DNA of 64,000 nucleotides. Source: Gloeobacter kilaueensis JS1. Its GTDB lineage: Bacteria > Cyanobacteriota > Cyanobacteriia > Gloeobacterales > Gloeobacteraceae. The notes under the pieces are model-generated. The model saw only the letters and a program-made list of their open reading frames with translations. It did no database searches and was not told the DNA's origin. Positions 7,156 through 49,356 of this stretch are shown here, piece after piece. The stretch spans positions 3,472,001-3,536,000 of the forward strand of contig NC_022600.1 in assembly GCF_000484535.1 (NCBI RefSeq), written 5' to 3'. Position 1 is the stretch's first letter, and the number at the start of each line of letters is the position of its first letter. The position numbers and the translations under genes were made by a program.

Positions 7156-8478
7156 ATGTTGATGCGCATAATGGAACTGGCCATTGCCGCAGACGGTGGA
7201 AACTTCCCTTTGAATGAAAGCCTCGATTCTCCTATCGGTCGGCTGTTCGGCGAGCGCTACCGCATCAGCCGCTTCGTCGCCGGTGGCGGCATGGGTAGAG
7301 TCTTTCAGGCGATCGATACGCGCCTTGCCGGCAAGATCGTGGCGATCAAGTTGCTCTCGCTGCAGCTACTGAGCAACCCGCAACTGGCGACCCGCCTGCG
7401 GCAGTGGTTCGAGCAAGAAGCACAACTCAGCGCCATCCTGGGCAAGCACTCGCGGATTATCCAGGTCACAGATTACGGCGTGGATGCAGGCCAGCCGTAC
7501 CTGGTCATGGAGTACCTCGAAGGCCGCAGCCTCAAGCAACTCATCGAGAGCGAGGGCGTGCTCGCCCTTGAGCGGGTCTTAAATCTGGCCGTTCAGATGT
7601 GTGAAGGTCTGCAGTTTGCCCATTCTCTGCAGACGCGGGTGGGCGGACGCCAGCTCAGTGGCGTCATCCACCGCGACATCAAGCCCAGCAACATCTTTGT
7701 CATCGACGAGGGCCGCCTCGGTGAGACGGTCAAGATACTCGATTTTGGCGTCGCCAAGGTAGTAGGCGACGTGCAGGAGACGCTGCACACCCAGTCGGGC
7801 TTTGTCGGCACCCCCCAGTACGCTTCTCCCGAGTTGTTGCGCGGCGAAGCGCTCGACTGCCGCTCCGACATCTACTCGCTCGGGGTCATCCTCTACCAGA
7901 TGCTGACCGCCCGGCTGCCCTTTTCGCCCCAGACCAATTCCTTCGGTGGCTGGTACCACGCCCACAACCACCTGCCGCCCATCGACCTGGGCGCTTTCAG
8001 CCCGGAGGTGCCCGAAGCCTTTGCCCGGACGGTGATGGCCTGCCTGGCCAAAGAGCGCGACGAGCGGCCTGCGACCATGGCCGAGGTGAGCGACCGATTG
8101 CAGGCGGCGATGACCACTCCGACCCTTTTTGCACCCACTTCCCCGGCAGAAGACTGGCGGCAGGTGATCCTCTCCGAACAGCCGATCGCCCTGCCTGCCA
8201 CGGTTCCGTCTGAGCCGGACACCCCCAAAAAGCCCACCGCCGGGCGCAGGCACCTGGCTTGGCGGATGATCCTCCTGGCTGCCCTCGCGGCTCTGGTGGT
8301 GCTATTACTGCAAGCTGCGCTCTCCCACCGCCCGATCGGTCTCTTCCAGAGCGTTCACCATCAGGGCGATGCCTGCTGGGCGCGGGCGATCGTTTCGAGC
8401 ATTCCCCGCGCCTTGCTGAGGGTTTCCTCGTACTCGACGAGTGGAACAGAATCGGCTACCAGCCCCGCCCCGGCCTGA
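7156..8478 (+). CDS. membrane-anchored Ser/Thr protein kinase
   Basis: 440 residues. A complete Hanks-type kinase domain spans about 33-320: glycine loop Gly-Gly-Gly-Met-Gly (43-47), catalytic Lys65, His172-Arg-Asp174, Asp196-Phe-Gly198, Gly-Thr-Pro-x-Tyr-x-Ser-Pro-Glu in the activation segment and Asp-Ile-Tyr-Ser. A linker and one membrane helix (about 370-388) follow. Bacterial kinases of this layout usually continue into an external sensor domain; here only about 50 residues remain, and the last ~39 codons are antisense to trpE. The tail therefore looks truncated or shifted. A GGAGGAGCAGGAG stretch precedes the ATG. Targets are unknown. Confidence 0.9.
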   Translation: MLMRIMELAIAADGGNFPLNESLDSPIGRLFGERYRISRFVAGGGMGRVFQAIDTRLAGKIVAIKLLSLQLLSNPQLATRLRQWFEQEAQLSAILGKHSRIIQVTDYGVDAGQPYLVMEYLEGRSLKQLIESEGVLALERVLNLAVQMCEGLQFAHSLQTRVGGRQLSGVIHRDIKPSNIFVIDEGRLGETVKILDFGVAKVVGDVQETLHTQSGFVGTPQYASPELLRGEALDCRSDIYSLGVILYQMLTARLPFSPQTNSFGGWYHAHNHLPPIDLGAFSPEVPEAFARTVMACLAKERDERPATMAEVSDRLQAAMTTPTLFAPTSPAEDWRQVILSEQPIALPATVPSEPDTPKKPTAGRRHLAWRMILLAALAALVVLLLQAALSHRPIGLFQSVHHQGDACWARAIVSSIPRALLRVSSYSTSGTESATSPAPA

Positions 8479-9857
8479 ATCGTCGCCTGATTATTGGCAA
8501 CTACCAGAGTCCGAATCGTGATGGCCGTATTGAGCTGGCCGTCGAAGCTGTAGTAGCCGTAGGCTCCGGCGTAAGGACCGCGCCAGAAAGGTTCCAGCTC
8601 GTAGATAATCTCCATCGCCCGGATTTTGGGCGCGCCGCTCACGGTCCCGGCAGGAAAAGTCGCCTTTAACAACTCCCAGGCCCGCGCCCCCTCCCGCAGT
8701 TCGCCCGTCACATTCGAGACGATGTGCATGACGTGGGAGTAGCGCTCGATCGTGAGCAGTTCATCGACCTGCACCGTTCCCGGCTTGCAGACGCGCCCGA
8801 GGTCGTTGCGGCCCAGATCGACCAGCATGACGTGCTCGGCCACCTCCTTTGGATCGGCGAGCAGGTCTTTTTCGAGCCACTGGTCCTCTTCGTCGTCGAG
8901 GCCCCGGCGGCGGGTACCGGCGATCGGCCTGAGGGTGGCAAGGGCTCGCCCCTCGCGCCGGTCGAGGCGGACCATCACCTCGGGGCTGGAGCCGACGATC
9001 TGAAAGTCGCCGAAGTTGTAGTAGGCCATGTAGGGCGAAGGGTTGATCACCCGCAAGGTGCGATAAAGGTCGAAGCTCTCGCCCCGGTAGGCTGTGGCGA
9101 AGCGCTGGGCCAGCACGACCTGAAAGATGTCACCGGCGCGGATGTACTCGCGGGCGCGCTCGACGGCGCTGCAGAACTCCTCGCGGCTGAAGTTGCTCGT
9201 AGGGCTTACCGGGGCCGCCGTCCATTCGAGGCTGAGGGGCCGGGCCTTCGCCGACGGTCTGGACAGGCGCTCCACCAGCGCGTCCACCCGTTCGCTCGCC
9301 TCCTGGTAGGCACTTTGCGCGTCCTGTTCGCGCAGGTCGGCGTAGGCCACCACCCAGATCTTGCGCTTGATCTGATCGAATATAAGAAGCGAATCGATCT
9401 GCATCCAGAAGCCGTCCGGCAGAGCGGCGGGCTCAGCGTGGACCGGCACCGAGGGTTCGATCCAGCGGATCAGTTCGTACCCCCAGTAGCCAAAGAGCCC
9501 CCCGATCCCGGCGGGCAACTCCGGCAGGTGAACCGGGTGATAAGGCTCCAAACAGCGATCGAGGACCACAAACGGATCGCCCCGGTGCAAAATTTTGTGC
9601 CCGTCGCGAAACACCTGCTCGCAGGTGTCGCCGCGCGCCGAGAGCGTCCAGAGGGGTTCACAGCCTAAAAAGCTATAACGGCCCAACCGCTCGCCGCCTT
9701 CTACCGATTCGAGCAAAAAGCTCTGCTGCGCCTCCGCACAGACTCTGTACCAGGCGGAGACAGGCGTCTCGAGATCGGCGAGGATCTCGCGGTAGACAGG
9801 AATAAAGTTTCCTTCGGCTGTTAGCTGGGCAAAGCGCTCAAAATCCGGTGCGACCAT
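8361..9857 (-). CDS. trpE: anthranilate synthase component I
   Basis: 498 residues from the ATG at 9857, preceded by GGGAGGGGAGC; the open frame extends further upstream but that part overlaps the divergent YciI gene. The Leu-Leu-Glu-Ser motif (48-51) marks the tryptophan feedback site of TrpE. The chorismate-binding half carries the family signatures around 'Ile-Ala-Gly-Thr-Arg-Arg-Arg-Gly', 'Asp-Leu-Gly-Arg-Asn-Asp-Leu-Gly-Arg', 'Pro-Ala-Gly-Thr-Val-Ser-Gly-Ala-Pro-Lys' and 'Gly-Ala-Tyr-Gly-Tyr'. It makes anthranilate from chorismate with the TrpG glutaminase, which is not adjacent. Its 3' end overlaps the kinase gene tail to tail by 118 bases. Confidence 0.93.
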   Translation of the reverse strand: MVAPDFERFAQLTAEGNFIPVYREILADLETPVSAWYRVCAEAQQSFLLESVEGGERLGRYSFLGCEPLWTLSARGDTCEQVFRDGHKILHRGDPFVVLDRCLEPYHPVHLPELPAGIGGLFGYWGYELIRWIEPSVPVHAEPAALPDGFWMQIDSLLIFDQIKRKIWVVAYADLREQDAQSAYQEASERVDALVERLSRPSAKARPLSLEWTAAPVSPTSNFSREEFCSAVERAREYIRAGDIFQVVLAQRFATAYRGESFDLYRTLRVINPSPYMAYYNFGDFQIVGSSPEVMVRLDRREGRALATLRPIAGTRRRGLDDEEDQWLEKDLLADPKEVAEHVMLVDLGRNDLGRVCKPGTVQVDELLTIERYSHVMHIVSNVTGELREGARAWELLKATFPAGTVSGAPKIRAMEIIYELEPFWRGPYAGAYGYYSFDGQLNTAITIRTLVVANNQATIQAGAGLVADSVPLVEYEETLSKARGMLETIARAQQASP

Positions 9858-41072: not shown

Positions 41073-41951
41073 TTATCCGGAGGCGGCAAAGGGCTGCAGG
41101 GCAGCGGCAAATGCGCGGCAATCGCGGTAGCGGTCCTGGGGCTGGTAGGCGGTCGCAACATCGATAATCGCGATCAGATCGGCGGGAATGCCTGCTGCGT
41201 CGAGGCCCAGCAGTCGGCGCTGGCGAATGTTGTAAAGGTTGCCCGGAAACTGGCGGGTGAGCAAGAACACCAGCGTCATCGCCACCCCGTAAATGTCCGA
41301 CTGGATGCAGGGACGGCCCTGGCTCTGCTCGGGCGGGCCATAGCCGGGGGTGGCGATGCGCGTGCCCTGGCGGTTGCTGAACTCTTTGACCGCACCGTAG
41401 TCGATGAGCACCACCTCGCGGGGGTTATAGCGCAAGATCATGTTGGCAGGCTTGAGGTCGCGGTGGATAACCGGCGGCGTGCGCTCGTGCAGGTAGGTGA
41501 GCACGGCACACACTTCGAGCATCCAGCCTACGGCCTGGCTCACCGATCGCGGCTGCAACTGTTCGAGCGTCAGGCCATAGATCATCTCCATGACCAGGTA
41601 ATAGCGATCTTCAGTACAAAAAAAATCGTAGAACCTGGGAATACCGGGGTGACGCAACTCGGCGAGCACCCGCGCCTCGCGCAAAAATAGCTCCCGCGCC
41701 TTTGCCTTGCGCGATAGATCGGCGTCGATCTCCTTGAGCACCGCCAGCCGGTCGTTCTGCAGGTTAAAAATTAAATACGTCGTGCTCATCCCGCCCTGGG
41801 CGAGGGTACTGATGATCTCGTAGCTATCCCCGGTTTCGGGGTTGGTGAGCACCCCCTCGCTGATTAAAAGCCTGCCGCAGATCCGGCAAAAGCGCGTGTA
41901 GCCGGGGTTGTTCTCACAGCAGGCAAGCGGCACTTCACTCCTGGCGGCCAC
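41073..41951 (-). CDS. Ser/Thr kinase with N-terminal zinc ribbon, next to eCIS genes
   Basis: 292 residues. Cys11-Cys12 ... Cys22-x-x-Cys25 form a small zinc-ribbon-like knuckle. The kinase domain (about 44-285) has Gly-Gly-Met-Ser in the glycine loop, Lys73, His163-Arg-Asp165 and Asp184-Tyr-Gly186, the last in place of Asp-Phe-Gly. The activation segment ends Pro-Gly-Tyr-Gly-Pro-Pro-Glu. It has no membrane segment. It lies 57 bases downstream of the last tail gene on the same strand, so it may be part of the injection-system transcript and phosphorylate its components; this is inference. Confidence 0.85.
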   Translation of the reverse strand: MAARSEVPLACCENNPGYTRFCRICGRLLISEGVLTNPETGDSYEIISTLAQGGMSTTYLIFNLQNDRLAVLKEIDADLSRKAKARELFLREARVLAELRHPGIPRFYDFFCTEDRYYLVMEMIYGLTLEQLQPRSVSQAVGWMLEVCAVLTYLHERTPPVIHRDLKPANMILRYNPREVVLIDYGAVKEFSNRQGTRIATPGYGPPEQSQGRPCIQSDIYGVAMTLVFLLTRQFPGNLYNIRQRRLLGLDAAGIPADLIAIIDVATAYQPQDRYRDCRAFAAALQPFAASG

Positions 41952-42008
41952 ACCGGCTCCTTACTCGATTGGTCCCCTTGCGGGCAGTCAGCATCGCGAC
42001 ACCTGGCC

Positions 42009-42323
42009 TTACGAAGATTTGCGGTTTTTCTTGAGATCTTCCGGGTTCATTGGCCCCATATCCAGGAAAATATGGTTGGGATCCTTGTTCTTTGCTATCA
42101 GCGTACTGCTCCACTTGCGCGCCTCGATCTGCTGATTGATCTTGCCTATCTCCTCCACCCAGCGCTGGCGCTCCCTGTGCTCAAGGCCCAAGATCGCATC
42201 CGGCGGCCAGTGAAAGTGAAAGGCAATGTAGGCTACCTCCTCGTACAGCCGCTCGGAGGGGTAGCCTAAGATTCCCCCGATAAGGCCAGCTCCACGGCGA
42301 ACTGGTTGCTGCAGTAGGGGCAC
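42009..42323 (-). CDS. DUF6760-like small eCIS-associated protein
   Basis: 104 residues from the GTG at 42323; the first ~15 codons overlap the preceding gene out of frame, so the real start may be later. The core 'Gly-Tyr-Pro-Ser-Glu-Arg-Leu-Tyr-Glu-Glu-Val-Ala-Tyr-Ile-Ala' and 'His-Arg-Glu-Arg-x-Arg-Trp-Val-Glu-Glu-Ile' resembles DUF6760, a short family seen in cyanobacterial and actinobacterial contractile-injection loci. Helical, soluble, with a basic tail. Exact role unknown; a tail assembly factor is likely from position. Confidence 0.72.
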   Translation of the reverse strand: MPLLQQPVRRGAGLIGGILGYPSERLYEEVAYIAFHFHWPPDAILGLEHRERQRWVEEIGKINQQIEARKWSSTLIAKNKDPNHIFLDMGPMNPEDLKKNRKSS

Positions 42324-42640
42324 TGGGCCGGGATGTGGGCGTTGCCCTGCTGATTGAGGCGATTGTATAACTCGCGCAGGTAGCCGATGTCTCGGGTAAA
42401 TAGACTTTCGAGCAACTCCGGGGTAAGGGGAGCGAGCGTTCCGAGGCGGGTGATCACCCGCGCCAGCATCACGAGCACGCCGTAGGCGGGATTTTCTTGC
42501 ACGCGGCTGTCATTTTGCACAGCCATCTCGTCCCTGGCGGTCGCCAGGCGCATCATCCCTTTTTTGTGCAGCTGCCCCTGATCGTCGAGCAACCCCCGTG
42601 GCAGGGTAAAGGGAAATTCACTTCGGAAATCTTCACTCAT
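42266..42640 (-). CDS. eCIS tail-assembly-like protein with C-terminal Cys-x-x-Cys
   Basis: 124 residues from the ATG at 42640. Residues 8-97 are clearly paralogous to the 42723-43046 product: (Phe/Leu)-x-Leu-Pro-(Arg/Lys)-Gly, Gly-x-Leu-His-(Lys/Arg)-Lys-Gly-x-Met-Arg-Leu, Asp-Glu, Arg-Val, Asn-Pro-Ala-Tyr, Ala-Arg/Ser-Arg-Val-Ile and a closing Leu-Tyr-x-x-(Leu/Ile)-Asn. A short C-terminal extension adds Cys107-Pro-Tyr-Cys110, half of a zinc knuckle, not found in the paralogue. Size and position are like phage tail assembly chaperones, but the assignment is inferred. Confidence 0.72.
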   Translation of the reverse strand: MSEDFRSEFPFTLPRGLLDDQGQLHKKGMMRLATARDEMAVQNDSRVQENPAYGVLVMLARVITRLGTLAPLTPELLESLFTRDIGYLRELYNRLNQQGNAHIPAQCPYCSNQFAVELALSGES

Positions 42641-42722
42641 ACGCGCACAACGAACAACAGCAAAAGGGCGAACCGATCGGCCCGCCCGCTGTGGAGAAGC
42701 AACCGCGCCACCCACGGGATCG

Positions 42723-43046
42723 TCAGGTCGCGGAGGACTTGGTCGCCTCCGGGATGAGCCCGTTGATCTGCCGGTAGAAGTTTTGCAGGTAATTGAGATC
42801 ACCAGCAAAAAAACCTTCGACGACCGCCGGGGTAATCTCGGGCAGGGCTCCCAACTGTACGATAACGCGGGAGAGGATGATGATCGTAGCGTAGGCGGGA
42901 TTGGACTTTACCCGTGGATCGCGCAGGGGCGCGATCTCGTCCATCGCCGTCGAAAGGCGCATGACGCCCTTGCGGTGCAAATTGCCGTCAGGATCGAGAT
43001 ATCCCTTGGGCAGGGCGAACTCATACTCAGTCTGAATGGCACCCAC
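42723..43046 (-). CDS. eCIS tail-assembly-like protein, paralogue
   Basis: 107 residues. It begins with a short beta part ('Tyr-Glu-Phe-Ala-Leu-Pro-Lys-Gly-Tyr') and continues in helices with the motif Gly-Asn-Leu-His-Arg-Lys-Gly-Val-Met-Arg-Leu-Ser-Thr-Ala-x-Asp-Glu-Ile. The next gene is a diverged copy. Two base pairs separate it from the tube-like gene before it, so it is in the same operon. The position directly after tube genes is where tail-tube chaperones sit in contractile phages; I infer that role. Confidence 0.72.
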   Translation of the reverse strand: MGAIQTEYEFALPKGYLDPDGNLHRKGVMRLSTAMDEIAPLRDPRVKSNPAYATIIILSRVIVQLGALPEITPAVVEGFFAGDLNYLQNFYRQINGLIPEATKSSAT

Positions 43047-43048
43047 GG

Positions 43049-43564
43049 CTACATTACTCGCTTGAACTCTTCAACGGCCAACTCCACCTCTTCGAGGGCG
43101 TACTCGCCGCTCGAAGCGTCCAGTCCGGGGCGGTTCGCCTCAATATAAGAGAACTTCCCGGAAGCTGGTCCAAAGCTGGTGGGCCAGGCTCCGTGGAAGT
43201 CGTAGCGCGCCCCCACATCACCCGCCTGAGTATACACCGTTAGCGAGCCCGAGCGACGCTTTGCTGCCCAACCGCCTTCTTCGACGCCGTTGAACCAGTT
43301 CCACATCGCAAGGGAACTGGTCATACCGTGTCTGAGAATCAAGGTGGTGCGCTGCGTATTTCCCGGTACCTTGGTGCTCACCACCATGCCGCGCTTGGCG
43401 TTCGCCCAGCGCTGGGGGGTGACTTCGACGACCTCGACGATCGGCTGTTTGGCCCGGATACCCCGGCACTCCAAAAAAAGAGCGTCCATGGGCCCAGCTC
43501 CGTCGAGCGACAGTTCGACGTAAAACCGACAGGCAACGAGGGCTTCAGCGCTGATGGGCAACAT
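43049..43564 (-). CDS. eCIS tube protein-like (gp19 family), third paralogue
   Basis: 171 residues. The start has the tube-family pattern 'Cys-Arg-Phe-Tyr-Val-Glu' followed by a short loop and 'Glu-Cys-Arg-Gly-Ile', then a Val-Pro-Gly-Asn-x-x-x-x-Thr-(Leu/Ile)-x-Leu-Arg-His strand and 'Met-Trp-Asn-Trp-Phe'. It is more divergent from the other two tube proteins than they are from each other and has a longer Ser/Pro-rich late loop. It probably forms a specialised tube ring (tip or base adaptor) rather than the main shaft. 17 bases after the second tube gene. Confidence 0.75.
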   Translation of the reverse strand: MLPISAEALVACRFYVELSLDGAGPMDALFLECRGIRAKQPIVEVVEVTPQRWANAKRGMVVSTKVPGNTQRTTLILRHGMTSSLAMWNWFNGVEEGGWAAKRRSGSLTVYTQAGDVGARYDFHGAWPTSFGPASGKFSYIEANRPGLDASSGEYALEEVELAVEEFKRVM

Positions 43565-43581
43565 GGCGGATCACCTCGAAT

Positions 43582-44076
43582 TTAGACAGTGCCGGCTTCG
43601 CGGCCAACACAGGTCATCTCCCGCCAGTGGATCGTGAAGGTCTCGGTCATGACGTCGCCGCTGCTGGCCTTGGCTGATCCAATTTTATAGTCGGAGGGCA
43701 CGCAATCGACGTACTCGAACTGCGAGACGACGTTGCCCGACTGGTCGTAGATGCAGAGCGTCGATGTCTTGCGGTTCTTAGACCAGGTATTGCCGGTGCT
43801 GGTCCACTGCTTGGCGCACTCGCTCATCCAGCGCTGGATGGCATTGTCCTTGCACATCACAACGGTGATCGTGTAGGGCTTGTTGGCGTTGGTGGACATG
43901 ATCGGCGTGCCGAAGAGCATACCGCCGGGCTTACCGGCACCCAGAACGGTGTTTTTGGAGGCGATCGTGTTGCTGTAGCTGAAGTCTTTGACTTCGAGGA
44001 CGGGGCGCTGCTCGATGCCGGTCGCTGACCAGTAGAATCGGCAGGAGACGAGAAACTCTCTATCGTGGTCGATCAT
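43582..44076 (-). CDS. eCIS tube protein (gp19 family), second paralogue
   Basis: 164 residues with the same order as the first tube gene: 'Cys-Arg-Phe-Tyr-Trp' start, 'Val-Lys-Asp-Phe-Ser', a Pro-Tyr-Thr-Ile-Thr-Val-Val strand, 'Gln-Arg-Trp-Met-Ser-Glu-Cys', Lys-Asn-Arg-Lys-Thr-Ser and a closing 'Glu-Thr-Phe-Thr-Ile-His'. The family forms hexameric rings of the inner tube of contractile tails. It lies 36 bases after the first tube gene. Confidence 0.8.
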   Translation of the reverse strand: MIDHDREFLVSCRFYWSATGIEQRPVLEVKDFSYSNTIASKNTVLGAGKPGGMLFGTPIMSTNANKPYTITVVMCKDNAIQRWMSECAKQWTSTGNTWSKNRKTSTLCIYDQSGNVVSQFEYVDCVPSDYKIGSAKASSGDVMTETFTIHWREMTCVGREAGTV

Positions 44077-44112
44077 CTGGCTTGCTCCTCCTTGTTGATG
44101 GGTGTGGGTCGC

Positions 44113-44577
44113 TTAGAGAACGCGCTTGATGCCTTCGTGGACCAGTTCGAGGGTCTCGGTCGCCATCGAGGACTGGCCGGCACCAAAGTCGGGACCGCCG
44201 TACTTGCAGGGATAAGAGTTGACAATCTCCCAGCGCGCCTGCATCGAGCCATCCTGACCATAGGCAGTGATCGAAGACGCTTTACGGTTGGTGCGCCAGG
44301 AAGAACCACCGGCATCGTTTTTGTTGCACTTCTCGTACCACTGGTAGAGATCGACGTCGTTGGTGGCGACGAGTTTGACGATCACGTGGGTAAAGCGCTC
44401 GACCGTCGGGGTGACCTGACGGGTCTTGGCACCGTTCTTGCTGGAGCCCTGGACGTTCTCGGCTCCGCCCACGGGCGAGGAGCACACCAGACCGCGAATT
44501 TCGCTGATCACCTTGTCGGTGATGCCGTCCGCTTCAAAGTAAAACTTGCAATTTGTAAGAAACTCTCCAGTAGCCAT
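44113..44577 (-). CDS. eCIS inner tube protein (gp19 family)
   Basis: 154 residues. It opens 'Leu-Thr-Asn-Cys-Lys-Phe-Tyr-Phe-Glu', continues with 'Val-Ile-Ser-Glu-Ile-Arg-Gly-Leu', 'His-Val-Ile-Val-Lys-Leu', 'Leu-Tyr-Gln-Trp-Tyr-Glu' and 'Thr-Asn-Arg-Lys-Ala-Ser', and ends 'Glu-Thr-Leu-Glu-Leu-Val-His-Glu-Gly'. This is the typical tail-tube fold of T4 gp19 and Afp1/5. As the first tube gene after the sheath, it is the best candidate for the main tube subunit. A strong hairpin lies between the sheath stop and its start. Confidence 0.85.
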   Translation of the reverse strand: MATGEFLTNCKFYFEADGITDKVISEIRGLVCSSPVGGAENVQGSSKNGAKTRQVTPTVERFTHVIVKLVATNDVDLYQWYEKCNKNDAGGSSWRTNRKASSITAYGQDGSMQARWEIVNSYPCKYGGPDFGAGQSSMATETLELVHEGIKRVL

Positions 44578-44630
44578 GATCTCGCTCGCTCCTTTGGTAA
44601 TGGATGACGTGATGAGTGAACAGGTCGGGA

Positions 44631-44662
44631 GCCGTCAGCCACCCCTAGGGATGGCTGACGGC
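44631..44662. repeat. inverted repeat between sheath and tube genes
   Basis: GCCGTCAGCCA (44631-44641) and TGGCTGACGGC (44652-44662) match over all 11 positions; the 10-base loop holds a further CCCTAGGG palindrome. No T-run follows on the minus strand, so it is not a classical terminator. It fits a processing or stability hairpin that would give the tube mRNA a different level from the sheath mRNA. Confidence 0.75.
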
Positions 44663-44678
44663 GAAAGTCAAGCCGTGT

Positions 44679-46352
44679 CTAGGCCACTTCCTCGTCGGCA
44701 GCGCCGTTCCACTGGCTGATGCGGAAGACGACGAATTCTGCCGGCCTGACCGGGCAGACGCCGACTTCGACGTACAACCGGCCCAGAACCATCGTCTCGG
44801 GCGTGTTCAGCTCTTCGTCGCACTTGACGTAGAAGGCTTGCTCGGGGGTGGCACCAAACAGCGCTCCCTCGCGCCAGATGCGCTCAAGGAAGTTAGAAAT
44901 GGTCCGGCGCACCCGCATCCAGAGGTCCTGATCGTTGGGCTCGAAGACCGCCCACTGGGTGCCCAGTTCGATCGACTTTTCGATGTAGCTGATGAGGCGG
45001 CGAACGCTGATGTAGCGCCACTCGGTCTTGTCGGGTTCAACCAGCGTGCGCGCGCCCCAGATGCGGATGCCGCGATTGGGGAAGGAGCGGATGCAGTTGA
45101 TGCCCAGGGGGTTGAGCAGTTCTTGCTCGCGGAAGTTGGTGTCGTAGGCAAGGCCGATGACGCCGCGCGGCACTTCGTTGGCGGGAGCCTTGTAGACGCC
45201 CCGCGTCTCGTCGGTGCGGCCCCAGACGCCCATGACGTGGCCGGAGGGCGGCACCAGCAGCGGGCGACCGCCGTTGCGCGGGTTGGCCACCTTGATCCAC
45301 GGATAGTAGAGGGCAGCAAACATCGAGCGGCGGTTGAAGGCGGCGAGCCACTGCACCACTTCCTGGGGCTTGACGCGGTCCGGCGGCGCATCGAGGACGA
45401 CCATGCGGTTGGGCGGGTTGGGCACATCGCCGGTGGCGGAGCCCTCGCACATGCTGATCATCATCTCCATGATCGCGTGGACCTGCTCAAGATCCAGCAG
45501 GTTCGCCTCGTAGGCGCGCCAGAGGTCGGGGCAGGCCACCATCGTGATCTCGTCGATTTCAAAGATGCCGCGCACGCCGGTGCGCTCGTCTCTTAGACCC
45601 TCGACATCGCGGGCAAAGCGGTCGATCGATGAAGCGACCAGCGGCGGCGACAGCTCATACTGGCCATTGCCGGGACGCCGAGCGAGTGGGCGACCGGTCT
45701 GAGCCAGATCTTCGATCTGAATAAACTGCGAAGTCTGCACGGCGGTGGCCACGTAGGTCGCTACCTGCGGCTGGGCTTCGCGCTCCATCGTCAGGTGCTC
45801 GAAGCGCTCAAGGATTTGATCGCCCCGGCGGACGGTGACCGTAAAGTATTCGCCGGTATTGACCGGCTGTTCGCCGCCCTGGCCGTCGGGCAGAGCGCGG
45901 GGGGTACCATCTGAAATCTGGACGGTCACAGAGCCCTGCTGGGCTGCCTCGGGCTTGAGGACGAGGCGCAGCGAGGGGCGGTTGCCACGGCTTTGGATCT
46001 GCAGCCCGGTTTCACTGGTGGGCTGGGGGGTACCCGGCTTGGGACCAGGCAGCTGCGTGCCGATGCTGGTCACCCAGCAACGGCCACCGCCGTTCATAAA
46101 CCAGCCGTAGACCGCAAAGGGCAGGTAGGCGTTGAAATCGGTAAAGCCATCGGAGCCGGGCCGGGCAAAGTAGTTGAGGTACTGGGTCCAGTTGGTGATG
46201 AGCATCGGCTTGAACGGTTCGGCACCGCCGCGCACATCCTCGCTGAAGCCGACGAAACCGGCGATGGCGGTAGCCACACCCTCGATCGGGCGACTACCAC
46301 GGTCAATTTCTTCGATGTATACGCCAGGGGCGAAATAATCCAGTCTTGGCAT
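44679..46352 (-). CDS. contractile tail sheath protein of the eCIS
   Basis: 557 residues. The N-terminal 'Phe-Ala-Pro-Gly-Val-Tyr-Ile-Glu-Glu-Ile' and 'Ile-Ala-Gly-Phe-Val-Gly' near 7-37 are the tail-sheath hallmark. A subtilisin-like middle domain, with 'Gly-Asn-Gly-Gln-Tyr' region insert, is followed by the C-terminal sheath domain: 'Ser-Val-Arg-Arg-Leu-Ile-Ser-Tyr-Ile-Glu-Lys-Ser-Ile' near 447-459, 'Trp-Ala-Val-Phe-Glu-Pro-Asn-Asp' and 'Ala-Phe-Tyr-Val-Lys-Cys-Asp'. It contracts to drive the inner tube through a membrane. Only one sheath gene is present, unlike the three of the Afp/PVC type. Confidence 0.93.
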   Translation of the reverse strand: MPRLDYFAPGVYIEEIDRGSRPIEGVATAIAGFVGFSEDVRGGAEPFKPMLITNWTQYLNYFARPGSDGFTDFNAYLPFAVYGWFMNGGGRCWVTSIGTQLPGPKPGTPQPTSETGLQIQSRGNRPSLRLVLKPEAAQQGSVTVQISDGTPRALPDGQGGEQPVNTGEYFTVTVRRGDQILERFEHLTMEREAQPQVATYVATAVQTSQFIQIEDLAQTGRPLARRPGNGQYELSPPLVASSIDRFARDVEGLRDERTGVRGIFEIDEITMVACPDLWRAYEANLLDLEQVHAIMEMMISMCEGSATGDVPNPPNRMVVLDAPPDRVKPQEVVQWLAAFNRRSMFAALYYPWIKVANPRNGGRPLLVPPSGHVMGVWGRTDETRGVYKAPANEVPRGVIGLAYDTNFREQELLNPLGINCIRSFPNRGIRIWGARTLVEPDKTEWRYISVRRLISYIEKSIELGTQWAVFEPNDQDLWMRVRRTISNFLERIWREGALFGATPEQAFYVKCDEELNTPETMVLGRLYVEVGVCPVRPAEFVVFRISQWNGAADEEVA

Positions 46353-46415
46353 GATGGGCTTCCTGTAGGGTAGGTGGGACGGCGCTGCCGGGAGTCTTCC
46401 CCGCCATCGCCGGAG

Positions 46416-47258
46416 CTAATTTGGAGTCAGCAGAATCTCCTTGAAGGTGTAATTCTGGGAGTCCACCAGCACATTGCACCTCTGGGTGAGATAGCCGGGA
46501 CAGTCCAACTCCAAAACGTAGTGACCGAGGGCGAGATTGTCGAAGTAGAACAATCCCTCCTGGTTGCTTGTCACTGCCTTTTTGGTACCGGCGATGGCCA
46601 CCTTGGCAGCGACTAGCGGTTCGGTGGTGAGGGCGCTTTTGACCACACCTGCAACAGAAACGCGCCGAGAGGCGGCTGAGTCGGCATGGCCATCGGCGGT
46701 CGATGAGCGCAGGCGGGTGATCCGCTCCCAGACCAGGGGAATCGGAGCGGCGGCGTTGGGATTGATGGGAGCGGTGATCGTCACCATCAAGGCCGGACGC
46801 AAGGGGGCTCCCAGGGCCAACCACAAAGTGGAAATGTCCATCGGACGCACCTGGCAGACGCTCATCGTCAGGTTGCCAAAGCCGCGCAGGGCCGGGGCGA
46901 GCAGATCCTCGCGCAGCGAGCGATGCCTGAGCAGCAAGCTCAAAGCCTCGGAGAGCAGATGGTGCTCGCCCAGTACCGTGCGGTCCCAGGCGGTGATCAA
47001 AAAGGAGGCATCGAACCAGGTGGGCGTCCAGCCCACCGCTGCCAGGGGCCGCTCATCGATGTAGCGGCGCTCGACCTGGCGGCTGGCCTGGGGCACCTGG
47101 GCATTTTCGCGCAGATCGTAAAAGTAAACATTGAGACCCTGCTGACCAGACTTTGTCTGCCGCTCGCCAGGCGGCGCAAAGTCGATCTGTTCAGTACTGG
47201 TGAGGGAGGTGCCCCCGGCTAAAATTTCGGCCAGGGTCTGAACGAGGGCGGTGATCAT
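46416..47258 (-). CDS. eCIS tail-terminator-like protein: DUF4255 plus carboxypeptidase-regulatory-like domain
   Basis: 280 residues. The first ~190 fit DUF4255 (Afp16/Pvc16-like): 'Leu-Asn-Val-Tyr-Phe-Tyr-Asp-Leu-Arg-Glu-Asn' near 42-52, 'Phe-Leu-Ile-Thr-Ala-Trp' near 87-92, 'Glu-His-His-Leu-Leu-Ser' and 'Leu-Trp-x-Ala-Leu-Gly'. Residues ~200-280 form a carboxypeptidase-regulatory-like beta sandwich ('Val-Ala-Gly-Val-Val', 'Asn-Gln-Glu-Gly-Leu-Phe-Tyr-Phe-Asp-Asn-Leu', 'Gly-His-Tyr-Val-Leu-Glu-Leu'). Terminators cap the tube and sheath at the distal end; the extra domain could bind a sugar or envelope surface. First gene of the operon; it diverges from the histidine kinase. Confidence 0.87.
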   Translation of the reverse strand: MITALVQTLAEILAGGTSLTSTEQIDFAPPGERQTKSGQQGLNVYFYDLRENAQVPQASRQVERRYIDERPLAAVGWTPTWFDASFLITAWDRTVLGEHHLLSEALSLLLRHRSLREDLLAPALRGFGNLTMSVCQVRPMDISTLWLALGAPLRPALMVTITAPINPNAAAPIPLVWERITRLRSSTADGHADSAASRRVSVAGVVKSALTTEPLVAAKVAIAGTKKAVTSNQEGLFYFDNLALGHYVLELDCPGYLTQRCNVLVDSQNYTFKEILLTPN

Positions 47259-47546
47259 TCGGGAGAAAGACGTTCGTATCCAGACTCAGATTAGGGAGCG
47301 GCGAGGCTTTCTGGTTATTAGACTTTGGTCGGAGATTTTTGCTGAATATTCGTGACGGAGCCGACAGCAACTTTTTCTAGACCCGCTATACTCATGGCAA
47401 ACACCAAATGGGCATGGGTATCTCGGGTTGCATACTTTCCTGCTTTCTCCCCTAGAACCTTAAGGAGAAGAGCACGATCGCCTGCGCCTTCCCACGTTCT
47501 CGGCTATGTGTGCTCCGGTTCTGCATCTGGTAGCTGCTCGCCTCCT

Positions 47547-48653
47547 ATGAAGGTCTCTTTCTCACCCGTATCCGTAAGCTCCACTGCGCCCCCCTCACCG
47601 CTCGAAAGTGCCTGCCGGCTGCATGCCGAGCAATTGAGCGCGCTCTGTCCGATTCTGTGCGTCCGCATCGCCTACTACGACCCCCACGCAGGTTGCTGCC
47701 GGCACCTGACCCACTACGGGCCAGATCAACCTGGTCTGCCGGAAGAAAGTTTCCCGGAGGCCACAGCCGAAAACTGGTTGACAGACAAGCTACCCGTAGC
47801 TACATTATCAGAAATCAATTTCAAGCATTTTCACGGCGCGGCCTATATCTGTCCTCTTGCTTACAGAGATCCCAATCCTGAGTACCTGCTTATTTTCTCT
47901 CCCCAGGTACTGAACACTTCACAAAAGCAGGCGATCGAGCAGGCGACTTTGCTTTTGGCCCGTCACCTCGAACTGTATCAAAAGTGCGTGCGCCAGCATT
48001 CTGAGATTCAACTGCTCGAGCAGGTCGTGCAGCGCGTCGGTCACCAGCTGCGCAATCCCCTGGCTCTGGTCAGCCTCTACGCTGAAAATCTCTGCCTGGG
48101 TCTTGCGGACGGCACAGCCCTCGAACAGGCGCAGATTATCCGTGAGACAGTCCAGGAACTGAATACCAATTTGACTGAACTCATCTACTGCGGGCAGGGG
48201 GTGCGCCTGCGCATGAGCTTTCAGGATCTGCGATCGATCTTCGATGAGAGCATCGAAGCGCTCCAGCCCTGGATTGCCAAAAAGGGACTGCAGGTCCGCC
48301 TGCCTGAGACTTCGCTGATGCTGGTGTGCGATCGGCTCCAGCTCAAGCAGGTCATCGACAACCTGCTCAACAACGCTGTTCATTTCAGTCCGGTGGGCGG
48401 GACAATCAATTGCCGCTGGCGCTCGTTTCAAAACGAGGTGCTCATCGAGATCAGCGACCAGGGGCCAGGGCTGTCCCATCAAGATCTTCAACAGATCTTC
48501 ACACCCTTTTATTCGCGCCGCCCCGGCGGCACTGGACTGGGGCTGGCGATTGCCAAGAAGATTGTTCTCGATCACCAGGGCAGTCTGTGGGCCCAAAACC
48601 TGCACGCCGGTGGGGCACAATTTTCTTTAAGTCTGCCTCGGGGTGTCAACTGA
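47547..48653 (+). CDS. sensor histidine kinase
   Basis: 368 residues from the ATG at 47547; the frame is open to 47352, but that part reads as low-complexity, Arg/Pro/Ser-rich and is doubtful. An N-terminal ~150-residue sensor region of GAF-like size has no membrane segments, so the kinase is soluble. The H-box Gly-His166-Gln-Leu-Arg-Asn-Pro-Leu, N-box 'Asp-Asn-Leu-Leu-Asn-Asn-Ala', G1 'Asp-Gln-Gly-Pro-Gly-Leu' and 'Gly-Gly-Thr-Gly-Leu-Gly-Leu' are all present. Its response regulator follows at once. The divergent orientation from the injection-system genes suggests that the pair controls them. Confidence 0.88.
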   Translation: MKVSFSPVSVSSTAPPSPLESACRLHAEQLSALCPILCVRIAYYDPHAGCCRHLTHYGPDQPGLPEESFPEATAENWLTDKLPVATLSEINFKHFHGAAYICPLAYRDPNPEYLLIFSPQVLNTSQKQAIEQATLLLARHLELYQKCVRQHSEIQLLEQVVQRVGHQLRNPLALVSLYAENLCLGLADGTALEQAQIIRETVQELNTNLTELIYCGQGVRLRMSFQDLRSIFDESIEALQPWIAKKGLQVRLPETSLMLVCDRLQLKQVIDNLLNNAVHFSPVGGTINCRWRSFQNEVLIEISDQGPGLSHQDLQQIFTPFYSRRPGGTGLGLAIAKKIVLDHQGSLWAQNLHAGGAQFSLSLPRGVN

Positions 48654-48681
48654 ATTGGGGCAGGCGGGGAGGCCAGGCTCA

Positions 48682-49356
48682 ATGGTGACTGCGGCGCTGT
48701 CCATTTTGCTGGTCGATGACGAGCAACGCTTTCGTCAGGGTCTGCGCACGCTGTTAAATTTTTACAGCTCCGCTGGTCCCACGACCTTTGAGATTGTCGG
48801 CGAAGCGGCCTCCGTCGAGCAGGCGATGGTCCTGGTCGGTGAGCAGCGGCCCGCTCTGGTGCTCTTAGATCTCGAACTGGCGCGCGGCGACGGGGTGGCG
48901 CTCCTCGAACAGTTGCGCGAGGGCAGCTACCACGGCAAGGTACTGGTACTCTCGGCCCACCAGGAGGACGACTGGGTCTTTCGCGCCATGCAGGCCGGTG
49001 CCTGCGGCTATGTCTTTAAGACCCACCTGGCAAGCCAGTTGGGCGAGGCGATCGCGACGGTGATGCGCGATGAAATTTATTTGCCGCCGGAGGTCGCCAC
49101 TCAGTTTTTCCGACTGTTTCACTACTATTCCGGTCGTTCGCTGCAGGCGCGCAGCCAGATTCACCTCACCGAGCGCGAGCAGGAGGTGCTCTACTGGCTG
49201 GTGCGGGGCGCTTCTAACGAGGAGATCGCCAAAAACCTCTACATCACGATCGCCACAGTCAAGGCGCACCTGACGGCAATCTTTGAAAAATTGCAGGTGA
49301 CAAGCCGCACCCAGGCGATCGTCGCGGCCCTCAAGCTCGGTCTGGTCCAGGCGTAG
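48682..49356 (+). CDS. NarL/LuxR-family response regulator
   Basis: 224 residues from the ATG at 48682, preceded by GGGGAGG; a GTG at 48643 overlaps the kinase gene but lacks a better site. Receiver domain: Asp12-Asp13 acidic pocket, phosphoacceptor Asp63 in Leu-Leu-Asp-Leu-Glu, and a conserved Lys in 'Tyr-Val-Phe-Lys-Thr'. C-terminal helix-turn-helix: 'Leu-Thr-Glu-Arg-Glu-Gln-Glu-Val-Leu' and 'Ile-Ala-x-Asn-Leu-Tyr-Ile-Thr-Ile-Ala-Thr-Val-Lys'. Cognate partner of the kinase. Its last 26 bases overlap the convergent glycosyltransferase gene. Confidence 0.92.
   Translation: MVTAALSILLVDDEQRFRQGLRTLLNFYSSAGPTTFEIVGEAASVEQAMVLVGEQRPALVLLDLELARGDGVALLEQLREGSYHGKVLVLSAHQEDDWVFRAMQAGACGYVFKTHLASQLGEAIATVMRDEIYLPPEVATQFFRLFHYYSGRSLQARSQIHLTEREQEVLYWLVRGASNEEIAKNLYITIATVKAHLTAIFEKLQVTSRTQAIVAALKLGLVQA

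What the first reader, a model, noticed from the sequence alone, without database searches (positions are those of the whole stretch)
42009..47258. Partial, cyanobacterial-type contractile injection system locus without baseplate, spike or ATPase
Seven minus-strand genes encode a DUF4255 terminator-like protein, one sheath, three tube-family proteins, two paralogous small assembly-like proteins and a DUF6760-like protein. The genes that normally complete an eCIS (gp25-like, spike, PAAR, baseplate, tape measure, AAA+ ATPase, cargo) are not in the 5 kb or the flanks. Either the machine is split over two loci, or this is a reduced tail-like device. In a thylakoid-less relative of the cyanobacteria with thylakoid-anchored systems, its anchoring site is an open question.
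Basis: partly seen in the sequence, partly recalled or inferred. Interest (0 to 1): 0.85.

Follow-up and report, generated by a model that had tools for sequence, protein, structure and literature searches.

The report
Scattered injection machine with frameshifted chaperone
A cyanobacterium keeps the genes of one spring-loaded injection machine scattered over several parts of its chromosome, and one of those genes appears to be read by a deliberate ribosome slip whose signal is nearly the same in similar machines of many bacteria and some archaea.

Summary
Most missing parts are elsewhere in the chromosome: gp25, baseplate J and a P2-I wedge protein about 616 kb away; spike, Cis7-like adaptor and a fourth tube protein about 700 kb away; a PAAR tip alone (ATPase not located). 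Sheath, gp25 and spike each have one match in the genome, so this is one split machine. Sheath and baseplate J lie >400 kb apart in 4 of 4 Gloeobacterales genomes with both on one contig; 11 of 12 genes tested are under purifying selection. Among solved structures, sheath and baseplate J are closest to the Streptomyces cytoplasmic system, not the thylakoid-anchored one. Main new result: the second small protein is a tail assembly chaperone, and DUF6760 continues it in the -1 frame across GGGGGAA, a 5-nt spacer and a 9-bp hairpin. Of 95 unique sites from many bacterial phyla and some archaea, 92 carry GGGGG there, 57 offer DUF6760 no ATG/GTG/TTG start, and silent positions in slip site and stem arms are strongly constrained, loop positions much less. 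This looks like the programmed frameshift of phage tail chaperones kept in injection systems. Translation is untested.

The parts
46416..47258 (-). Pvc16/DUF4255 cap (tail terminator) protein with carboxypeptidase-regulatory-like domain
   Evidence: Pfam Pvc16_N 2.8e-22; dN/dS 0.097 against G390
44679..46352 (-). contractile sheath, 557 aa, the only sheath match in the genome
   Evidence: best PDB match 8BKY, E 6.5e-123, residues 5-552
44113..44577 (-). inner tube protein A
   Evidence: Phage_T4_gp19 1.2e-28; TIGR02241 134.2 bits, cut-off 62.4
43582..44076 (-). inner tube-family protein B, fast evolving
   Evidence: Phage_T4_gp19 4.4e-10; 38% identity and dN/dS 0.81 against G390
43049..43564 (-). 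inner tube-family protein C
   Evidence: Phage_T4_gp19 1.3e-26; TIGR02241 64.7 bits, cut-off 62.4
42723..43046 (-). tail assembly chaperone paralogue 1 (TAC1)
   Evidence: 42% identical to TAC2 in alignment A3; phrog_508 matches 51 of 52 members of A3, the output does not name the one that fails; dN/dS 0.066
42266..42640 (-). tail assembly chaperone paralogue 2 (TAC2) with zinc-ribbon-like C-terminal end; frame 0 of the frameshift gene (ATG at 42640 is my choice of start)
   Evidence: phrog_508 5.9e-11; model pLDDT 86, best PDB fold match HK97 TAC 2OB9, E 0.027
42272..42278 (-). slippery heptamer G GGG GAA
   Evidence: position; GGGGG at this place in 92 of 95 unique sites
42231..42266 (-). 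stem-loop 5 nt after the heptamer: GGCUACC/GGUAGCC, bulged A, CC/GG
   Evidence: RNA model R1 has one hit in the 4.72-Mb genome at E<=1
42009..42275 (-). DUF6760 (P2 gpE-like) extension read in the -1 frame of TAC2
   Evidence: Pfam DUF6760 3.7e-14; Phage_P2_GpE 0.0039, below cut-off; -1 relation in 114 of 115 sites
41073..41951 (-). Ser/Thr protein kinase directly downstream, possibly associated
   Evidence: Pkinase 1.1e-31; relatives beside the module in G386 and G392 and G390 (dN/dS 0.27)
47352..48653 (+). histidine kinase, divergent from the cap gene, probable regulator
   Evidence: HATPase_c 3.2e-25
48643..49356 (+). NarL/GerE-type response regulator, partner of the histidine kinase
   Evidence: Response_reg 2.8e-21, GerE 5.9e-19; kinase/regulator pair beside this module also in G101, G008 and G167, regulator in G386 and G390

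Best explanation
The island is the sheath, tube, cap and assembly module (A) of one apparently complete contractile injection system (ATPase not located) whose other modules lie elsewhere in the chromosome: B (fourth tube protein, long disordered protein, Cis7-like adaptor, spike), C (gp25, baseplate J, P2-I wedge, then membrane and FHA proteins) and a lone PAAR tip. It belongs to a cyanobacterial branch near the Streptomyces cytoplasmic systems. The two small proteins are tail assembly chaperones. The second, TAC2, is made in two forms: the short one, and a longer one produced when a fraction of ribosomes slips back one base on G GGG GAA, helped by the hairpin 5 nt downstream, and goes on into DUF6760. 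By analogy with lambda G/GT and P2 E/E+E' (recalled), the chaperone would coat a long lumen or tape protein and the extension would recruit tube subunits, so that the ratio of the two forms would govern tube assembly. The particle would then dock at the cytoplasmic membrane through module-linked single-span proteins and fire under control of kinases and a two-component system. Shown by sequence: gene content, dispersal, -1 frame, conserved slip site and hairpin, selection. Inferred: slippage, chaperone function, docking, firing.
For: One match each for sheath, gp25 and spike, at 3.517, 2.901 and 2.817 Mb; PAAR elsewhere. Content of modules C and B. Sheath match in 7 of 9 Gloeobacterales genomes, own included, one of them (G387) only a 40% partial match; baseplate J in 5 of 7 further Gloeobacterales genomes searched, absent from G391 and G387; the two lie >400 kb apart in G390, G389 and G386 too. 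All 14 long-sheath cyanobacteria searched have gp25 and spike matches. dN/dS 0.07-0.38 for 11 of 12 genes tested. TAC identity: phrog_508 in 51 of 52; HK97 TAC as best PDB fold; Mu FS-gp41 ninth among viral folds. GGGGGAA is the 'fivetwo' slip motif of about a thousand annotated phage sites (PMC10885494, passages).
Against: No translation or protein data. Covariation is modest: 9 double-change cells (2 of 500 shuffles reach that), but the number of double-change pairs does not beat shuffles (55 of 500) and the covariation score (0.083) is not above two slid controls (0.087, 0.100); the arms hardly vary. A 101-nt piece folds no better than its shuffles (z -0.57). 16 of 95 sites have ATG/GTG/TTG within 5 codons before the Tyr of the domain, so re-initiation is possible there. 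Haloferax larsenii has the gene pair without the slip run. The stem is disrupted in L152, L169 and L175; L141 has the frames in another relation. Of 15 cyanobacterial module A loci looked at, 4 (G024 second copy, G074, G193, G125) have no TAC2-DUF6760 beside TAC1; G193 and G125 have DUF6760 elsewhere, G074 nowhere. The spacer codons and some flanking codons also deviate from local usage (z up to 6.5 and 4.7). Related sequences are not independent, which inflates the z values. No ATPase located.
Confidence: 0.82

Rival explanations
1. TAC2 and DUF6760 are two separate proteins; the overlap is translational coupling (termination and re-initiation), and the hairpin serves that coupling.
For: 16 of 95 sites have ATG/GTG/TTG within 5 codons of the domain; Haloferax has a 4-nt gene overlap without the slip run; the six annotated public stretches opened list two genes.
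Against: 57 of 95 sites have no ATG/GTG/TTG between the upstream stop and the domain, 12 of 95 no table-11 start at all. The G run is fixed in frame and place, which re-initiation does not need; one exception, L175, carries GGGAAAC, a slip site of the canonical X XXY YYZ kind.
Confidence: 0.12
2. The island is a remnant or reduced tail-like device, not part of a working injection system.
For: Spike and gp25 are not in the window; no eCIS_core cargo in the genome; no clear ATPase in the stretches held.
Against: Baseplate, spike, adaptor and tip genes exist elsewhere; purifying selection on 11 of 12 genes tested; same split in related genera.
Confidence: 0.05
3. A prophage or tailocin remnant.
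For: Tail chaperone, P2-I and J-like proteins are of phage-tail kind; 1712 phage records hold some sheath relative.
Against: All 1712 phage sheath matches are below 60% identity and 4 records have a place covering 80% of the query; DUF6760 has one weak hit, E 0.06, in 50,697 phage records and 8 loci in the viral contig set, all 8 with sheath relatives. Neighbours include a kinase and a two-component system. Capsid and terminase families were not searched.
Confidence: 0.03
4. A thylakoid-type (Anabaena tCIS) system adapted to a cell without thylakoids.
For: It is cyanobacterial; a Nostoc plasmid system with two sheaths also has the TAC-DUF6760 junction.
Against: The Anabaena sheath matches only residues 363-546 (E 2.6e-55) against nearly full length for Streptomyces (6.5e-123); baseplate J finds no Anabaena chain at E<=0.001; in the sheath tree the two-sheath systems lie apart (no support values read). 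Cis12 extension, Cis13 and Cis19 were not searched.
Confidence: 0.05

Closest known systems
Streptomyces coelicolor cytoplasmic CIS (dbeCIS subtype IId), PMC10066040 and PMC12237407 (passages)
   Same: Nearly full-length sheath and baseplate J similarity; no conventional tail fibre and no typical Afp14 tape measure reported there; a Streptomyces plasmid cluster has the order sheath, tube, TAC, DUF6760, long protein, tail protein, LysM, VgrG, PAAR, gp25, baseplate
   Different: Genes dispersed instead of one cluster; no sequence homologue of a presumed Streptomyces CisA found by pairwise comparison; extra kinase, FHA, WD40 and PBP-domain proteins; two chaperone paralogues
Thylakoid-anchored CIS of Anabaena PCC 7120 (PMC8894136, abstract and passages)
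   Same: Cyanobacterial host, same core parts; a two-sheath Nostoc plasmid cluster shares the TAC-DUF6760 junction
   Different: Sheath related only in its C-terminal third; single gene cluster in Anabaena; Gloeobacter has no thylakoids (recalled)
Programmed -1 frameshift of phage tail assembly chaperones (lambda G/GT, P2 E/E+E', HK97: recalled; SEA-PHAGES sites: PMC10885494 passages; HK97-like cluster with 7% frameshifting: PMC3711429 passages)
   Same: Chaperone followed by a -1-frame extension, slip site near the chaperone stop, GGGGGAA motif, chaperone family and fold
   Different: In a host-encoded injection system rather than a phage; slip site and hairpin nearly invariant across bacterial phyla and in some archaea
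T6SS kinase/FHA control (PpkA/Fha, recalled)
   Same: Kinase and FHA-domain genes beside modules
   Different: No functional test; different contractile lineage

Membership tests
Contractile injection system (eCIS/CIS) | sheath, tube, cap, gp25, J-like baseplate, spike and PAAR present in the genome | tested here: met
Contractile injection system (eCIS/CIS) | AAA+ ATPase Cis15 | tested here: inconclusive
   one weak 29% hit (L005) in 179,100 bases of own genome; strong hits in 4 of 38 relatives' stretches (L099, L085, L090, L084); whole genome not searched
Contractile injection system (eCIS/CIS) | genes in one cluster (a search criterion, linkage within 12 kb, in PMC8213781; not a structural feature) | tested here: not met
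   sheath, gp25 and spike 84 to 700 kb apart
Streptomyces-type subtype IId | sheath and baseplate J closest to the S. coelicolor system among solved structures | tested here: met
   tree places Streptomyces sheaths nearby, support not read
Streptomyces-type subtype IId | CisA membrane adaptor | tested here: inconclusive
   no sequence relation beyond a 20-aa zinc ribbon (E 0.008) to a Streptomyces protein presumed CisA by position; layout alike: zinc ribbon, one span, C-terminal domain
Thylakoid-anchored CIS | Cis13 transmembrane fibre, Cis12 extension, Cis19 crown | not tested
   no query sequences fetched
Phage-type tail assembly chaperone with programmed -1 frameshift | chaperone homology or fold | tested here: met
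   phrog_508 in 51 of 52; HK97 TAC best PDB fold, prob 0.99 but E 0.027
Phage-type tail assembly chaperone with programmed -1 frameshift | extension in the -1 frame overlapping the chaperone end | tested here: met
   114 of 115 sites
Phage-type tail assembly chaperone with programmed -1 frameshift | conserved slip site just before the chaperone stop | tested here: met
   GGGGG in 92 of 95; stop 7 or 10 nt after the expected first G in 91 of 95
Phage-type tail assembly chaperone with programmed -1 frameshift | stimulatory downstream RNA structure | tested here: inconclusive
   for: silent-site constraint, 95.3% paired cells against 29.8-63.7% when slid; against: weak covariation, no fold-energy excess
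Phage-type tail assembly chaperone with programmed -1 frameshift | both protein forms are made | not testable with these tools
   needs a reporter or mass spectrometry
Prophage or tailocin | close phage relatives | tested here: not met

The most novel reading that the evidence does not exclude
A -1 ribosomal frameshift with a near-invariant RNA signal is a general assembly switch of lineage-II contractile injection systems in bacteria and some archaea: DUF6760 is not a gene but the tail of the chaperone, and the short-to-long ratio, acting on a long disordered lumen protein, replaces the 'missing' tape measure system. In Gloeobacterales the same machine is encoded as dispersed modules that cluster-based surveys cannot see.
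Probability: 0.55. Interest if true: 0.85.

Novelty: new variant of a known kind. Interest (0 to 1): 0.72.

Why it matters
Papers on the Streptomyces and haloarchaeal systems report no typical tape measure protein (PMC10066040; PMC11566945; passages). A tail chaperone made in two forms would mean that these machines keep the phage way of assembling the tube, and gives a single small target to break. Surveys that demand linked genes (within 12 kb, at least ten core genes, PMC8213781, passages) would be expected to miss dispersed systems such as this one.

Tried and rejected
Thylakoid-type reading: set aside on sheath and baseplate similarity. Prophage reading: set aside. Rfam: no match in 41900-47500 at E<=1. 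Cis6 spike plug as the identity of DUF6760: passages in PMC8894136 place Cis6 as a plug in the spike, so I did not equate them; not tested by sequence. The 2736-aa disordered protein as Cis6 or tape measure: its conserved C-terminal motif finds no convincing PDB or Pfam relative (best E 0.36 and 0.016), left open. CisA homology of the kinase/PBP protein: not found by sequence. Sheath tree: topology only, support values not read, so used lightly. Chaperone profile against PDB sequences: no hit at E<=1; only the fold search linked it to HK97. In that search no PDB match reached E<=0.001, and eight viral matches rank above Mu FS-gp41, five of them named baseplate or baseplate hub proteins.

Counts and drops: six of 110 loci (L114, L121, L126, L128, L129, L133) were missed by my pattern and dropped; the 115 sites repeat some genomes, hence the 95 unique sequences; 57 of these (below 85% identity) form alignment A2. 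Of the 57, two gave no chaperone start (L141, L149); of the 55 extracted I aligned 51 (L140, L154, L176, L218 left out) plus TAC1.

Literature on frameshifting in injection systems: full-text searches (open PubMed Central subset). Searches found 119 and 562 papers with two or more of the terms, and only the 25 best of each were listed. Among the listed titles and the passages I opened none describes it; PMC13222765 holds the words only in a reference title; PMC10269795, a phage paper holding all three terms, was not opened. 'DUF6760' is in no held paper. Subscription papers were not searchable. No paper was read whole.

Full report
What was checked. The eight minus-strand genes are real and six of them match known Pfam families: cap (Pvc16_N), sheath, three gp19-type tube proteins and DUF6760 (TIGR02241 tube model). 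Two small paralogues between them match nothing in Pfam above cut-off. The genome is one contig of 4,724,791 bases, the window being 3,472,001-3,536,000; its size suggests Gloeobacter kilaueensis (recalled).

One machine, several places. Sheath: one match, in the window. gp25: one match at 2,901,441. Spike (Phage_GPD): one match at 2,816,626. PAAR: two matches, at 3,683,177 and 222,567. Around gp25 (module C) lie a 732-aa baseplate protein whose best solved relative is a J-like baseplate chain, a Tail_P2_I protein, a DUF4159 protein, a WD40 protein with a borderline and an Ig-like protein with a clear hydrophobic span, and an FHA protein (simple hydropathy only). Around the spike (module B) lie a CIS_tube/Cis7-like adaptor, a fourth tube-family protein (by similarity) and a 2736-aa low-complexity protein; just beyond are a protein with weak kinase-like, single-span and PBP parts and an FHA protein with two spans. 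The 161-aa PAAR at 222 kb is 54-60% identical to PAAR genes lying near gp25 and spike in G125, G087 and G008, so it is probably this machine's tip.

The split is old. In a sample of 194 cyanobacterial genomes 23 hold a sheath match at E<=1e-20. The 14 with the long-sheath type all hold gp25 and spike matches. Modules are near each other in some: G066, G091 and G167 within about 35 kb, and G125 within about 26 kb, with a second gp25 and spike set 2.3 Mb away. In others they lie on different contigs of draft genomes (G008, G087, G101, G193 and more), which does not prove distance. In Gloeobacterales 7 of 9 genomes, own included, have a sheath match, one of them only 40% identical and partial; baseplate J is found in 5 of 7 further genomes searched. 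Where both lie on one contig they are far apart: 4.298 and 1.515 Mb (G390), 0.529 and 0.977 Mb (G389), 2.618 and 0.992 Mb (G386), and 616 kb here. In G386 modules B and C are together. Against G390, dN/dS is 0.07-0.38 for 11 of 12 genes tested; tube protein B is the exception at 0.81. This is not decay.

Which kind. The sheath matches 8BKY over residues 5-552 (E 6.5e-123) and the Anabaena thylakoid-type sheath only over residues 363-546 (E 2.6e-55); 8BKY is an entry of the S. coelicolor paper (PMC10066040, data section). Baseplate J matches 9GTP (E 1.8e-123), an entry that shares its sheath sequence with 8BKY, and no Anabaena chain at E<=0.001. The sheath tree puts the family beside an Anaerolineae and Streptomyces/Armatimonadetes sheaths and apart from two-sheath systems (support not read). 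So it is probably a cyanobacterial branch near the cytoplasmic systems that mediate death of the producing cell under stress (PMC10066040, passages). Two relatives, G066 and G091, carry an eCIS_core cargo gene near the modules; the own genome has none at E<=0.01.

A chaperone read in two frames. phrog_508 'tail assembly chaperone' matches 51 of 52 aligned members of the small-protein family; Pfam Phage_TAC_7 matches 5 of 52 weakly. The predicted fold of TAC2 (pLDDT 86) has the HK97 chaperone as best PDB match (probability 0.99, TM 0.49/0.57, E 0.027; none reaches 0.001). Among viral models the top ones are named baseplate or hub proteins or are unnamed, with Mu FS-gp41 ninth (E 8e-4). DUF6760 also shows a weak Phage_P2_GpE match (0.0039, below cut-off). 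In 11 of 11 genomes where TAC2 was found beside TAC1, own included, DUF6760 lies in its -1 frame and the junction reads NNG GGG GAR in the same frame. Four more module A loci (second copy of G024, G074, G193, G125) have no such pair beside TAC1; DUF6760 is elsewhere in G193 and G125 and not found in G074.

The wider set. All 80 have a chaperone relative and 76 a sheath or tube relative in the fetched stretch. Together with loci, relatives and the window, 115 sites were read: 114 have an upstream frame open for 60 or more codons in the -1 relation, 12 also in the other. Among 95 unique sequences, 81 have GGGGGA, 10 GGGGGG, 1 GGGGGT; L175 has GGGAAAC, L207 GGAAAAG, L214 the same run one codon earlier. 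The chaperone stop comes 7 or 10 nt after the expected first G in 91 of 95; 57 of 95 have no ATG/GTG/TTG for DUF6760, 12 of 95 no table-11 start, 16 have one within 5 codons, 22 only further upstream.

The RNA signal. Codon choice against local usage: slip-site Gly GGG 93 of 95 (17.3 expected, z 20.7) and GGA 81 of 92 (z 14.3); stem arm 1 GGC 50 of the 50 sites with Gly, TAC 92 of 95, CCC 84 of 95 (z 10.3, 13.0, 15.2); stem arm 2 GAG 72 of 76, GAG 93 of 95, GTA 89 of 91, GCC 51 of 95 (z 11.5, 13.3, 19.0, 6.4). The two spacer codons give z 6.5 and 6.0, the five loop codons 4.0, 0.6, 2.2, 0.8 and -0.6, the codons after the stem -0.6 to 4.7. In loci above 60% GC, Val is GTA in 18 of 20 against 1.8 expected. 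The sequences are related, so z values are inflated; the GC-rich subset is the stronger argument. The consensus hairpin has 7 + 2 pairs with a bulged A. On 57 divergent sequences 95.3% of cells pair, against 29.8-63.7% when one side is slid; 9 cells changed on both sides (2 of 500 shuffles reach it), but double-change pairs do not beat shuffles (55 of 500) and the covariation score does not beat two slid controls. A 101-nt piece folds no better than shuffles (z -0.57). Model R1 finds one place in the own genome at E<=1. In plasmid records from Nostoc, Streptomyces, Streptantibioticus, Rhodococcus, Paraburkholderia, Paenibacillus and Rhizobium the run is present in 9 of 10 read, Haloferax being the tenth; the six annotated stretches list two genes. 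The heptamer GGGGGAA is described as the 'fivetwo' slip motif across 'the thousand' such motifs of the SEA-PHAGES data (PMC10885494, passages).

How it would work. Short and long chaperone would load a long lumen protein and recruit tube subunits, as in lambda and P2 (recalled). A candidate lumen protein is the module B protein (2736 aa here, 187-1874 aa in the position-equivalent genes read), which by eye keeps a C-terminal LAxEIYxxLRQRIEIERER-like motif in 13 of 15 (not G066, not clearly Streptomyces) and has no convincing solved relative. Docking could use the kinase-like/PBP protein: 10 of 10 members read, own included, have one span, and it recurs beside modules in nine other cyanobacterial genomes; it resembles CisA only in layout. 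A histidine kinase and GerE-type regulator stand divergent from the cap gene here, and the pair or the regulator stands near it in five relatives. Function in this paragraph is inference throughout.

Limits. 

Noticed in passing
window 43582-44076: Tube-family protein B is far less conserved than its neighbours (38% identity, dN/dS 0.81 against G390).
   Followed up: no
L007:11342-19552 (genome 2.818-2.827 Mb): A 2736-aa disordered protein between the fourth tube protein and the Cis7-like adaptor; position-equivalent genes are 187-1874 aa and most keep a short C-terminal motif.
   Followed up: partly
L104:1232-3331: Zinc-ribbon, degenerate-kinase, single-span, PBP-domain protein recurring beside CIS modules in nine other cyanobacteria; layout like Streptomyces CisA without sequence relation.
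   Followed up: partly
L102:8061-8354: A second lone PAAR protein (97 aa) in the same genome.
   Followed up: no
L007:7548-8207 and 8231-8899: Two paralogous proteins with signal-like N-termini directly after the spike gene; the one tested has no Pfam match.
   Followed up: no
L255, L257: CIS clusters with the TAC-DUF6760 junction on plasmids typed as conjugative in Nostoc and Rhodococcus.
   Followed up: no
L262: Haloferax larsenii has chaperone-position and DUF6760 genes with a 4-nt overlap but no G run, so haloarchaea may use coupling instead of slippage.
   Followed up: no
L141: One unnamed cyanobacterium has the chaperone in another frame relation to DUF6760; an indel or assembly error is possible.
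   Followed up: no
L099, L085, L090, L084: Four stretches of cyanobacterial relatives of the same family carry a Cis15-like ATPase near a module.
   Followed up: no
sheath tree: The Gloeobacteraceae sheaths group with Nostocales sheaths while G386 of the same order branches deeper, which could mean horizontal transfer among cyanobacteria; support not read.
   Followed up: no
L089-L091 (G125): G125 carries two gp25/spike/baseplate sets, one near its sheath and one 2.3 Mb away, and its DUF6760 at a third place.
   Followed up: no
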